Part shown: positions 17,015 through 19,144 of the stretch, piece after piece
Layout of the letters: every line of letters starts with the position of its first letter
How positions within the stretch are numbered: position 1 is the first letter of the stretch
NCBI RefSeq assembly: GCF_030332225.1
Contig: NZ_JAOWIF010000028.1
Location: 868,001-932,000, forward strand
DNA from: Citrobacter sp. Cu233
GTDB lineage: Bacteria > Pseudomonadota > Gammaproteobacteria > Enterobacterales > Enterobacteriaceae
Direction of reading: 5' to 3'
DNA: 64,000 nt
Notes under the pieces: model-generated
What the model was told of the DNA's origin: nothing
The model's input: only the letters and a program-made list of their open reading frames with translations
The model's database searches: none
Translations under genes and position numbers: made by a program

Positions 17015-17896
17015 ATGAAAAAAACATTACTTGCAGCCGGTGCAGTGCTGGCGCTCTCCTCGTCATTTACTGTTGCAAACGCGGCAGAAAATGACAAACC
17101 GCAATATCTTTCCGACTGGTGGCATCAGAGCGTTAACGTTGTGGGTAGCTACCACACTCGCTTCGGACCGCAGCTCCGTAACGATACCTACCTGGAATAC
17201 GAAGCGTTTGCCAAGAAAGATTGGTTCGACTTCTATGGTTACATGGATGCACCGGTATTCTTCGGTGGTAACACCGATGCGAAAGGTATCTGGAACCACG
17301 GCTCTCCGCTGTTCATGGAAATCGAACCCCGTTTCTCCATCGACAAACTGACCGGTACCGACCTGAGCTTCGGTCCGTTCAAAGAGTGGTATTTCGCGAA
17401 CAACTACATCTACGACATGGGTCGTAACAAAGATGGCCGCCAGAGTACCTGGTACATGGGTCTGGGTACCGACATCGACACCGGCTTGCCGATGAGCCTG
17501 TCCATGAACGTGTACGCTAAGTACCAGTGGCAGAACTACGGTGCTGAGAACGAAAATGATTGGGACGGCTACCGTTTCAAAGTGAAGTACTTTGTACCAA
17601 TTACCGAACTGTGGGGCGGTAACCTGAGCTACATCGGTTTTACCAACTTTGACTGGGGTTCCGATCTGGGTGATAAGAGCGCCTACGCTGAGAATGGCAT
17701 TAAACAGCGTACTAACAACTCTATCGCCTCCAGCCACATTCTGGCGCTAAACTATGACCACTGGCATTATTCTGTCGTTGCCCGTTACTGGCACAACGGT
17801 GGTCAGTGGAACGATAACGCGGATCTGAACTGGATGAATGAAAACGTTCGTTCTACCGGTTGGGGTGGTTACCTGGTTGTAGGTTACAACTTCTAA
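17015..17896 (+). CDS. tsx: Nucleoside-specific outer-membrane channel Tsx
   Basis: This 294-residue beta-barrel takes up nucleosides and is a receptor for phage T6 and colicin K in E. coli. An in-frame start at 16910 would add 35 non-signal residues; the ATG at 17015 gives a proper Sec signal ([23 protein letters not shown]) and mature [16 protein letters not shown], matching E. coli length. Alternating aromatic barrel strands run to the terminal YLVVGYNF, an outer-membrane insertion signal ending in Phe. It is followed by a good terminator. Confidence 0.97.
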
Positions 17897-17918: not shown

Positions 17919-17943
17919 AGCCAGCTTAACCGCTGGCTTTTTT
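17919..17943 (+). terminator. Rho-independent terminator of tsx
   Basis: AAGCCAGC and GCTGGCTT flank a six-base loop and are followed by six T residues (17938-17943). It overlaps the last bases of the convergent WYL regulator gene. Confidence 0.85.
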
Positions 17944-18634
17944 ATGGCCGATCTTCACAGCGTACTTTACGTAAAAAGTCACTTAGCGAACGATCTGCGG
18001 ATTCGCGGAAATGCCTGTCGAGCGGCGTGATCTTCAGACAACGATCAACGCGAAAACAGCGATAATCGTCACGATTCTCACACCATGCAACCAGTAGCCA
18101 GTGCTCGCCCCAGAAAAATAACCCCAACGGCTGAACATCTCGCCAGGAGAGATTCCCGGACTCATCGCGATAATGTAGCGCCAAAATCTGCTGCACCGAA
18201 ACCGCGCGATGAATAAGATCGAACGCACGGCGTGAATGCGGCTGATTGCCAAAATCAGGTGCGTAAATCCGCGCTTGTTCGGCCCTGCGCCGACTCTCTG
18301 GCGGCAATATCGCCAGCACTTTTTCCTGCGCAGATTCCAGCGCCTGTGAGAGTGAATCCCCACCCCATGTTTTCAGTAGCCGAATAGCCACCATCAACGC
18401 TTCTGATTCGTGCTGCGTTAACATCAACGGCGGCAGATCATATCCGGCCATTAAGCGATATCCACTGCCCGCTTCGCCTTCAATGGGCACACCGGATAAA
18501 GAGAGATCGCGGATATCGCGATAAATCGTGCGTTCAGAAACCTCAAGACGTTCTGCCAGCAGCGCCGCCGTTGTCACTCGCCTGCCACGCAGGATTTGTA
18601 CAATCTGAAACAAGCGGTCGGCGCGTCTGGTCAT
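17942..18634 (-). CDS. WYL-domain transcriptional regulator (YafY/DeoR-like helix-turn-helix)
   Basis: This 230-residue regulator has an N-terminal winged helix (TRRADRLFQIVQILRGRR, then ERLEVSERTIYRDIRDLSL, residues about 2-50) and a C-terminal WYL domain (VSVQQILALHYRDESG, then DVQPLGLFFWGEHWLLVAWC, FRVDRCLKI). Such proteins sense small ligands or nucleic acid ends. It is the second gene after a VOC-family gene, 22 bases apart, and a perfect palindrome lies upstream of the pair, suggesting self-regulation. E. coli has yajD at this place instead. Confidence 0.85.
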   Translation of the reverse strand: MTRRADRLFQIVQILRGRRVTTAALLAERLEVSERTIYRDIRDLSLSGVPIEGEAGSGYRLMAGYDLPPLMLTQHESEALMVAIRLLKTWGGDSLSQALESAQEKVLAILPPESRRRAEQARIYAPDFGNQPHSRRAFDLIHRAVSVQQILALHYRDESGNLSWRDVQPLGLFFWGEHWLLVAWCENRDDYRCFRVDRCLKITPLDRHFRESADRSLSDFLRKVRCEDRP

Positions 18635-18656
18635 CTTTACTCTCTCTCAGGAATTA

Positions 18657-19022
18657 TTACGCAGGCTGATGTAAGCCAACACGATTGCCTTCGCTGTCGG
18701 TAAATAACGCAATCGTGCCGATATCCTGCCCCAGTTCAAGTGGCCCAAACACACATTTGCCACCCGCCGTTGTGACACGATCGAGCGTTGCCGCCAAATC
18801 GTCCGTATGCAGGTAAATAATAGCGCCCTGCTGCGAAGGTATCATTCCGTCAAATTTTGCCAGTGCGCCGCCGGGAGCCGGATCCTGATGCGGAAATACC
18901 GCCAGATCGGCACAATCCATCTTCTCCCGGCGCAGCGAAACCTGCATCACCGGCTCATAAAATGCAACGGCGCGATCCATTTCCACTACTGGAATTTCAA
19001 ACCAGTTAATGACATTTTTCAT
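18657..19022 (-). CDS. VOC (glyoxalase/bleomycin-resistance fold) family protein
   Basis: This 121-residue single-domain protein has the vicinal-oxygen-chelate fold signature: N-terminal INWFEIPVVEMDRAVAFYEPVM, central ALAKFDGMIPS and IIYLHTDDLAATLDRVTTAGG, and C-terminal FTDSEGNRVGLHQP with the metal-ligand glutamate. The reaction cannot be named; members include glyoxalases, dioxygenases and binding proteins that sequester antibiotics. It shares an operon with the WYL regulator immediately downstream. Confidence 0.85.
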   Translation of the reverse strand: MKNVINWFEIPVVEMDRAVAFYEPVMQVSLRREKMDCADLAVFPHQDPAPGGALAKFDGMIPSQQGAIIYLHTDDLAATLDRVTTAGGKCVFGPLELGQDIGTIALFTDSEGNRVGLHQPA

Positions 19023-19069
19023 ACATCCTCCTGCCTTAATGAGTAAGTTCAGGAGGACTATAAAACAGG

Positions 19070-19095
19070 ACTACTGACAGCATACTGTCAGTAGT
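19070..19095. promoter_or_regulatory. Perfect palindrome, likely operator of VOC/WYL operon
   Basis: ACTACTGACAG (19070-19080) and CTGTCAGTAGT (19085-19095) are exact inverted copies around CATA. The site lies 48 bases upstream of the VOC start, where a promoter would be, and a DNA-binding dimer such as the adjacent WYL protein could occupy it. Confidence 0.6.
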
Positions 19096-19114: not shown

Positions 19115-19144
19115 AAAAAAAATCCCGACCTTGCGATCGGGATT
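19115..19144 (-). terminator. Rho-independent terminator of the secDF operon
   Basis: On the minus strand AATCCCGA and TCGGGATT form a stem followed by a run of eight T residues, 23 bases beyond the secF stop. Confidence 0.85.

What the first reader, a model, noticed from the sequence alone, without database searches (positions are those of the whole stretch)
17942..19095. VOC/WYL gene pair with a perfect 11-bp palindrome operator in place of yajD
The two genes form a compact operon and the palindrome (ACTACTGACAG/CTGTCAGTAGT) lies at the likely promoter. A WYL regulator controlling a VOC protein looks like a small detoxification or antibiotic-sequestration switch.
Basis: partly seen in the sequence, partly recalled or inferred. 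Interest (0 to 1): 0.5.

Follow-up and report, generated by a model that had tools for sequence, protein, structure and literature searches.

The report
Promoter switch for DNA-damage defence genes
Beside a Citrobacter secretion operon sits a two-gene switch whose DNA control site recurs across the Gammaproteobacteria with the same kind of regulator and, in some other bacteria, next to genes that repair alkylated DNA, which suggests a little-noticed DNA-damage response separate from SOS.

Summary
VOC (18657-19022, -) and HTH-WYL (17942-18634, -) form an operon; the palindrome 19070-19095 is exact and the only such site in the 4.79 Mb genome. It is a real operator: all 27 of 198 sampled family genomes with a close VOC relative have it upstream, and only 2 of the other 171 have a comparable site. 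Its core TACTGACA-N6-TGTCAGTA recurs in 23 other genomes (31 sites) of 369 of the class; the reversed pattern in none; 22 of the 23 have a WYL relative. A -10-like hexamer lies 20 nt from the centre without a -35, the geometry of the WYL activator DriD. In the 23 class genomes, 7 of 22 tag and 4 of 11 alkC genes lie within 4 kb of a site. I propose a WYL activator sensing DNA damage that switches on genotoxin or alkylation defence; Enterobacteriaceae keep only VOC plus the regulator. A second inverted repeat, not in the finding, pairs the discriminator with the ribosome-binding site. Signal and VOC ligand are unknown.

The parts
18657..19022 (-). VOC-fold protein gene, 121 aa, first gene of the operon
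   Evidence: ORF; Pfam Glyoxalase E 8e-9; AlphaFold2 model pLDDT 94.6, VOC structures on top in VIA-align
17942..18634 (-). HTH_11 + WYL regulator gene, 230 aa, second gene of the operon; no third (WCX) domain recognised
   Evidence: ORF; Pfam WYL E 1.6e-18 and HTH_11 E 7e-18; profile matches PafBC, PafC and DriD-type chains in the PDB
19070..19095 (.). palindromic operator; core TACTGACA-N6-TGTCAGTA is 19072-19093
   Evidence: conserved in relatives
19057..19062 (-). -10-like hexamer TATAGT, first base 20 nt from the palindrome centre
   Evidence: at this offset 52 of 57 distinct enterobacterial rows match TATAAT at 4 or more of 6 bases
19080..19085 (-). place where a -35 hexamer would lie (17-bp spacer); sequence GTATGC, no -35 match
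   Evidence: mean 0.95 of 6 matches to TTGACA over 57 rows
19050..19056 (-). 5' arm (CCTCCTG) of an inverted repeat, lying between the -10 hexamer and the expected transcription start
   Evidence: position read
19027..19033 (-). 3' arm (CAGGAGG) = Shine-Dalgarno of the VOC gene
   Evidence: position read
19049..19050 (-). expected transcription start (7-8 nt after the -10 hexamer); inferred, not mapped
   Evidence: inference from the -10 position
19121..19144 (-). stem of the likely secF terminator, followed on the - strand by a T run, upstream of the operator
   Evidence: inverted repeat read; the same type of hairpin in many relatives

Best explanation
The palindrome is the operator of the WYL protein. 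A WYL dimer sits over the place of the missing -35 element and, when its WYL domain is loaded with a nucleic-acid signal of DNA damage (most likely single-stranded DNA, as in DriD, PafBC and SiwR), holds RNA polymerase on a promoter that has only a -10. This turns on VOC and the regulator's own gene (positive feedback). The VOC protein, which lacks conserved histidine ligands, binds or disarms a DNA-damaging small molecule. In other Gammaproteobacteria the same kind of regulator and operator also drive 3-methyladenine DNA glycosylases (Tag, AlkC), so the ancestral job is a defence against alkylation or genotoxin damage independent of SOS. A hairpin made only in read-through RNA hides the ribosome-binding site and keeps the operon silent until its own promoter fires. 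Shown by sequence: operon, operator, its conservation, co-occurrence with the regulator, fixed spacing to a -10, gene company, arm complementarity. Inferred: binding, dimer, activation, the signal, the VOC ligand, the transcription start, the lock.
For: Operator: 27 of 27 family genomes with a VOC match of E<=1e-30 have a site with 0-1 mismatch upstream of it, and 2 of the other 171 genomes have such a site anywhere. Class: 23 genomes besides this one, 31 sites, among 369; reversed control 0. Regulator: WYL at E<=1e-25 in 22 of 23 genomes with the site (the miss is 55% complete) and in 6 of 23 hand-picked genomes without; 3 of those 6 carry a variant site (Fisher P 1.7e-6). Spacing: -10-like hexamer at centre+20 in 52 of 57 enterobacterial rows and 27 of 37 order- and class-level loci; the next best offset has 12. 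No -35: 0 of 57 rows have 5 or more matches at offsets -4 to -2. DriD: same geometry, weak -35 (1-2 of 6), GAC/GTC half-sites, homodimeric activator (PMC12340889: section 11, section 12 part 1, passages). Arginine pairs needed by SiwR (R38/R42, R204/R207; passages) have same-spaced counterparts R35/R39 and R195/R198, present in all 76 aligned WYLs. Repair: in the 23 class genomes 7 of 22 tag and 4 of 11 alkC genes lie within 4 kb of a strict site, 0.07 and 0.04 expected; AlkC identity by PDB match E 8e-65.
Against: No experiment. Tag and AlkC were chosen after they were seen in the loci, so the Poisson values are after the fact and assume uniform placement; 13 of the 23 class genomes have neither gene near a site. 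For tag in G685 and alkC in G688 the site directly upstream is a variant of the strict motif, and for tag in G540 the -10 on its side is weak. The enterobacterial operon holds no repair gene. Some strict sites (L274, L275) have no clear target, and some WYL-led sites lack a -10 at +20 (L273, L276). Some of the 22 WYL matches are weak or far from a site (G677, 39%). Other WYL proteins (BrxR, CapW) are repressors. The left arm's CTGACA is itself 5 of 6 to a -35 consensus, though 23 bp from the -10. The WYL model is poor (pLDDT 60). VOC proteins bind many kinds of ligand.
Confidence: 0.55

Rival explanations
1. The WYL protein is an autorepressor: it covers the promoter and lets go when a small molecule (the VOC ligand) binds, a plain xenobiotic switch with no link to DNA damage.
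For: The site overlaps the core promoter; known WYL repressors exist (BrxR, CapW; passage, listing); the pair is compact like many repressor-plus-enzyme operons.
Against: A repressed promoter should be strong when free, yet none of 57 rows has a -35 at the right place (mean 0.95 of 6). The solved relatives found by profile include the activators PafBC and the DriD-type DeoR-family chain. Repair genes share the operator in other genomes.
Confidence: 0.22
2. The operator controls a defence against toxic metabolites or electrophiles (methylglyoxal, formaldehyde-like compounds); DNA repair genes joined because such compounds also alkylate DNA.
For: VOC, GFA-like (L155, recognised by eye), GyrI-like (L157 by Pfam) and GST-like (L193, by eye) neighbours; Glyoxalase Pfam hit; E. 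coli glyoxalase I is second among the VIA-align rows, Z 13.0, 18% identity.
Against: No histidine is conserved at 85% or more among 90 VOC sequences, so the metal site of glyoxalase I seems to be lacking; PafBC and DriD, the WYL proteins whose ligand I saw described, bind single-stranded DNA (passages).
Confidence: 0.3
3. The second inverted repeat is an RNA thermometer or an ordinary anti-ribosome-binding-site leader rather than a read-through lock.
For: Stem over the Shine-Dalgarno in most of 53 leaders.
Against: Its 5' arm begins at or within a few bases of the -10 hexamer in most leaders, so RNA started 7-8 nt after the hexamer would lack most of it.
Confidence: 0.3

Closest known systems
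DriD of Caulobacter crescentus (WYL activator)
   Same: HTH-WYL relative (a DeoR-family/WYL chain, 8tp8, profile E 3e-9; named DriD in PMC11804915, passage); palindrome with GAC/GTC half-sites centred on the -35 place; weak -35; DNA-damage regulon (PMC12340889, sections and passages read)
   Different: DriD site has 7 nt between GAC and GTC and flanks ATAC/GTAT, here 8 nt and TACT/AGTA; [quoted passage not shown] DriD targets include didA, bapE, recJ, dnaG, here VOC, and tag or alkC in other genomes; no WCX domain recognised here
SiwR of Mycobacterium smegmatis
   Same: WYL activator with a palindrome in its target promoter; genotoxic stress; in some actinobacteria a glyoxalase-like (PF18029) gene is the neighbour (PMC10693628, passages and section 12 read)
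   Different: 19-bp imperfect palindrome between the -35 and -10 regions; DinB-like targets; WCX domain present
PafBC of mycobacteria
   Same: WYL DNA-damage activator that replaces the usual -35 contact (PMC11804915, passages read)
   Different: heterodimer, binds a -26 motif through PafB only, WCX domains, most damage-induced genes of the cell under it
Ada/AidB adaptive response of E. coli (recalled)
   Same: regulated defence against alkylated DNA, includes a 3-methyladenine glycosylase
   Different: sensor is a methyl-accepting Ada protein, not a WYL protein
VOC antibiotic-binding proteins (TnmS1-3, mitomycin C-binding protein)
   Same: VOC fold; TnmS3 Z 12.3, 25% identity; mitomycin C-binding protein Z 10.6, 16% identity; their ligands damage DNA (recalled)
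   Different: no ligand shown here; sequence identity low

Membership tests
WYL transcription factors, class B (HTH-WYL) | N-terminal HTH plus WYL domain, no WCX | tested here: met
   Pfam HTH_11 7-60 and WYL 137-203, protein ends at 230; no C-terminal domain at E 0.001; class definition from PMC6789036, passages
WYL transcription factors, class B (HTH-WYL) | conserved arginines of the WYL pocket | tested here: met
   R192, R195, R198 in all 76 aligned sequences; aligned with the R..R stretch of the DriD-type and PafBC chains
DriD-type activator promoter | site centred on the -35 place at fixed distance from the -10, poor -35 | tested here: met
DriD-type activator promoter | activation of transcription with bound ssDNA | not testable with these tools
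   needs protein and reporter work
DriD-type activator promoter | consensus ATACGAC-N7-GTCGTAT | tested here: not met
   here TACTGAC-N8-GTCAGTA; so not filed as DriD
SOS / LexA regulon | CTG-N10-CAG LexA box (recalled) | tested here: not met
   the palindrome's CTG and CAG are 12 nt apart (read)
Glyoxalase I | metal ligands His/Glu (recalled) | tested here: not met
   no histidine among columns conserved at 85% or more in 90 VOC sequences
VOC antibiotic-binding proteins | VOC fold | tested here: met
   model pLDDT 94.6; VIA-align rows
VOC antibiotic-binding proteins | binding of an antibiotic | not testable with these tools
   needs protein work
Read-through-locked leader (T4 gene e, IS10/IS50 type; recalled) | Shine-Dalgarno paired with an arm just upstream of the own transcription start | tested here: inconclusive
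   complementarity shown, start site not mapped
BrxR/CapW WYL repressors | repression of an adjacent phage-defence operon | not testable with these tools
   the operon itself holds only VOC and WYL

The most novel reading that the evidence does not exclude
Gammaproteobacteria carry an unrecognised SOS-independent and Ada-independent DNA-damage regulon run by class B WYL activators through TACTGACA-N6-TGTCAGTA, with 3-methyladenine glycosylases (Tag, AlkC) and VOC genotoxin-binding proteins as core members; Citrobacter, Klebsiella and Enterobacter keep a reduced form, locked against read-through by an RNA hairpin that the operon's own start site cuts off.
Probability: 0.42. Interest if true: 0.78.

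Novelty: new variant of a known kind. Interest (0 to 1): 0.6.

Why it matters
[quoted passage not shown] An operator shared by a WYL gene, tag and alkC makes that question directly testable. It would also be an inducible DNA-damage response present in Klebsiella, Enterobacter and Citrobacter but not found in the E. coli collection, the organism in which bacterial DNA damage was mostly studied. Class B WYL proteins are found mostly in Proteobacteria (PMC6789036, passage); the passages that I saw of six papers (PMC10693628, PMC6789036, PMC11804915, PMC12340889, PMC12288472, PMC10957082) describe no class B operator.

Tried and rejected
LexA/SOS box: rejected, the spacing does not fit (read). Glyoxalase I activity: unlikely, no conserved histidine. 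The arms of the second inverted repeat as a second WYL site: rejected, because in L020, L022 and L024 they no longer resemble the operator although the operator is kept. A promoter with its -10 inside the palindrome (TATGCT): not excluded, but it has no -35 either. The palindrome as a MerR-type site (CTGACA with a 23-bp spacer): thought unlikely, spacer too long. NCBIfam: only hits far below the curated cut-offs. Search for the operator letters in papers: the 15 of 43 papers listed are about other subjects. Searches of papers for WYL with VOC, glyoxalase, alkylation or regulon: no paper on this pair or regulon among the rows shown (3 of 3, 18 of 18, 1 of 1, 20 of 361, 20 of 305, 10 of 14, 7 of 7). 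WYL structure model: too poor to use. The structure search of the VOC model was a second look at 998 chains only; families not listed there are not excluded. fold_alignment and the count of structure pairs were planned for the leader but not run; the loops differ in length and a partner-swap test was used instead, which does not correct for relatedness. Rows dropped: L008 from the swap test; only 20 of 53 leaders were aligned, and that alignment was not used further; from the VOC alignment for the model L074 (stop in frame), L073, L075, L080, L084, L086. My note gives 4 genomes for the order-wide reversed-pattern control; one search shows 3. The tally of repair genes near sites was read by me from the coordinates; only the expectations and P values come. 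The automatic operon table missed several operons because of overlapping reading frames, so targets were also read. The 23 genomes without the site were picked by hand, not drawn.

Full report
WHAT IS THERE. On the minus strand between secF and tsx lie a 121-aa VOC gene (18657-19022) and, 22 nt further, a 230-aa regulator with HTH_11 and WYL domains (17942-18634). Upstream, at 19070-19095, is ACTACTGACAG-CATA-CTGTCAGTAGT, an exact palindrome with 11-bp arms. It does not occur in 100 shuffles of the window at up to 3 mismatches, and its inner 24 bp occur once in the 4.79 Mb genome at up to 3 mismatches. Citrobacter contigs hold the nearest relatives (VOC 88-97% identical in L032-L038). Neither megablast nor blastn finds the locus in the E. 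coli collection; E. coli K-12 has yajD at this place. In the window's own genome yajD is on another contig.

THE PALINDROME IS AN OPERATOR. A palindrome of this kind lies within 160 nt of the VOC start in 64. The other two (L009 and L063, contigs of equal length, apparently one organism) have it 188 nt upstream (read for L009's genome). There are 18 distinct 24-mers; at eight of the ten arm positions 17 or 18 of the 18 keep the symmetry, at the third and the innermost 12 of 18, and the third position changes mainly in pairs (C-G in 38 rows, A-T in 14, G-C in 1, unpaired in 11). In a sample of 198 family genomes, 27 have a VOC match of E<=1e-30 and all 27 have a site with at most 1 mismatch before it; of the other 171 genomes only G003 and G155 have such a site anywhere. 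The WYL gene follows in all of the 66 loci but L028, whose genome G027 has no WYL match. Its frame holds a stop in G034 and is split in G028 and L066; in the last two secF is split as well, so sequence errors are likely there. Twelve of 17 sampled genomes of the window's genus have the WYL gene.

BEYOND THE FAMILY. Of 22 loci (L139-L160) with WYL relatives of 43-50% identity in other families of the order, 19 carry the core CTGACA-N6-TGTCAG upstream (L145, L150, L160 do not within the locus), and 17 have a VOC match, only 33-43% identical. In 295 genomes of the order the form TNCTGACA-N6-TGTCAGNA occurs exactly in 44; the reversed pattern in 3. In 369 genomes of the class the strict form TACTGACA-N6-TGTCAGTA occurs in 23 genomes besides this one, 31 sites; the reversed pattern in none. 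Of the 23, 22 have a WYL relative at E<=1e-25; the miss is a 55% complete genome. Of 23 genomes without the strict site that I picked by hand, 6 have one, and 3 of these 6 carry a variant site with a -10. Fisher P is 1.7e-6; the comparison set was not random, and some of the 22 matches are weak (G677, 39% identity, no site beside it).

PROMOTER GEOMETRY. In 57 distinct enterobacterial rows the hexamer that starts 20 nt after the palindrome centre matches TATAAT at 4.12 of 6 on average, and 52 of 57 have 4 or more; the hexamer at the -35 place (17-bp spacer) matches TTGACA at 0.95 of 6. At 37 order- and class-level loci (L177-L213) the same offset has 27 with 4 or more on the better strand, the next best offset 12 (the better-strand rule was applied to all offsets). 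So the palindrome centre sits on the -35 place. [quoted passage not shown]). SiwR needs its -26 region, HTH R38/R42 and WYL R204/R207 (PMC10693628: section 12 and passages); here R35/R39 and R195/R198 have the same spacings and are in all 76 aligned sequences. That these are the equivalent residues is inference.

GENES UNDER THE OPERATOR. By Pfam: Tag (PF03352) in L210, L159/L180 and L231; DNA_alkylation (PF08713) in three of four genes directly behind sites (L179, L198, L208; the fourth, L204, had no hit at 0.001 but is 53% identical to the L198 protein); DUF2461 (L196); TfoX_N (L211); GyrI-like (L157); a UvrA-like gene at a second site in G832. The L198 protein matches solved AlkC at E 8e-65. 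In G540 the site lies between divergent alkC and tag. In the 23 class genomes, 22 tag genes were found, 7 of them within 4 kb of a strict site (G540, G559, G565, G619, G685, G754, G832); 11 alkC genes, 4 within 4 kb (G489, G540, G666, G688). In G685 and G688 the site directly before the repair gene is a variant of the strict one. Expected by uniform placement: 0.07 and 0.04; Poisson 1.8e-12 and 6.6e-8. The two families were chosen after they had been seen, and 13 of 23 genomes show neither. Outside this class sample, alkC follows a site in G460 and tag lies in a site-led operon in G469. In this genome the operon is only VOC plus WYL.

THE VOC PROTEIN. Model pLDDT 94.6. VIA-align on 998 chains puts VOC proteins on top: 4qb5 Z 15.5, E. 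coli glyoxalase I 13.0 (18% identity), TnmS3 with tiancimycin 12.3 (25%), mitomycin C-binding protein 10.6 (16%). No histidine is conserved at 85% or more among 90 sequences, which speaks against glyoxalase I. A binding role for a DNA-damaging compound is an inference from the gene company.

THE SECOND INVERTED REPEAT. In the window CCTCCTG (19050-19056) pairs with CAGGAGG (19027-19033), the Shine-Dalgarno. The predicted stem starts at or within a few bases of the -10 in most of 53 distinct leaders (mean z of folding -1.8, 22 of 53 below -2). Own arms pair better than swapped arms in 52 leaders taken together (sum -509 against -442, sd 11; 0 of 20000 permutations; relatedness not corrected). 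L014, L015, L020 and L022 keep the pairing with changed letters; L012, L018, L019, L023 and L041 pair no better than swapped arms on average. With a start 7-8 nt after the -10 the RNA would lack the 5' arm, so only read-through RNA would fold. Outside the family the pairing is present only in some (9 of 54 rows with z below -2, mean -0.5, against mean -2.0 for 53 family rows).

LITERATURE. WYL activators are named as regulators of LexA-independent responses (PMC12288472, passages). For DriD and PafBC the part in methylation damage is called open, and a methylation reporter in Caulobacter was induced without driD (PMC10957082, passages). Paper searches listed no paper on this pair, operator or regulon; long lists were seen only in part.

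VERDICT. What it works like: a DriD-type WYL activator switch. What it is: a class B WYL regulator with its own operator, not DriD itself. That it serves alkylation or genotoxin defence is the best-supported function, unproven.

Noticed in passing
17015-17896: The neighbouring tsx gene is far more variable than its surroundings: Tsx is 59% identical to L032 where VOC is 97%, 61% to L034, 77% to L033. Tsx is a phage and colicin receptor (recalled).
   Followed up: no
L119:3013-3357 (G000:C27): yajD of this genome lies between a chitinase-like gene and yeaC-msrB-gapA-like genes (names by eye) instead of beside secF.
   Followed up: partly
19027-19056: Inverted repeat pairing the discriminator with the Shine-Dalgarno of the VOC gene, kept in most family leaders.
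   Followed up: yes
L147, L154, L157, L155, L159, L184, L211: Extra genes inside operator-led operons: GyrI-like (L157 by Pfam; L147, L154 by eye), GFA-like (L155), monooxygenase-like (L159) and isochorismatase-like (L184) by eye, TfoX_N (L211, Pfam).
   Followed up: partly
L281 (G540:C118): One operator between divergent alkC and tag genes.
   Followed up: partly
L290 (G832:C39): A strict operator with a -10-like hexamer before a UvrA-like gene whose frame stays open to the end of the fetched stretch.
   Followed up: no
upstream of the operator in many Enterobacter loci, e.g. L041, L043, L046: A further CTCCTGACA half-site starts 13 bp before the operator's own half-site; 15 of 57 rows have a 5-of-6 or better TTGACA match there.
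   Followed up: no
operator centre 19081-19084: The centre of the palindrome is not symmetric: A and G at two centre positions are invariant in 56 family rows, which suggests direction-dependent contacts.
   Followed up: no
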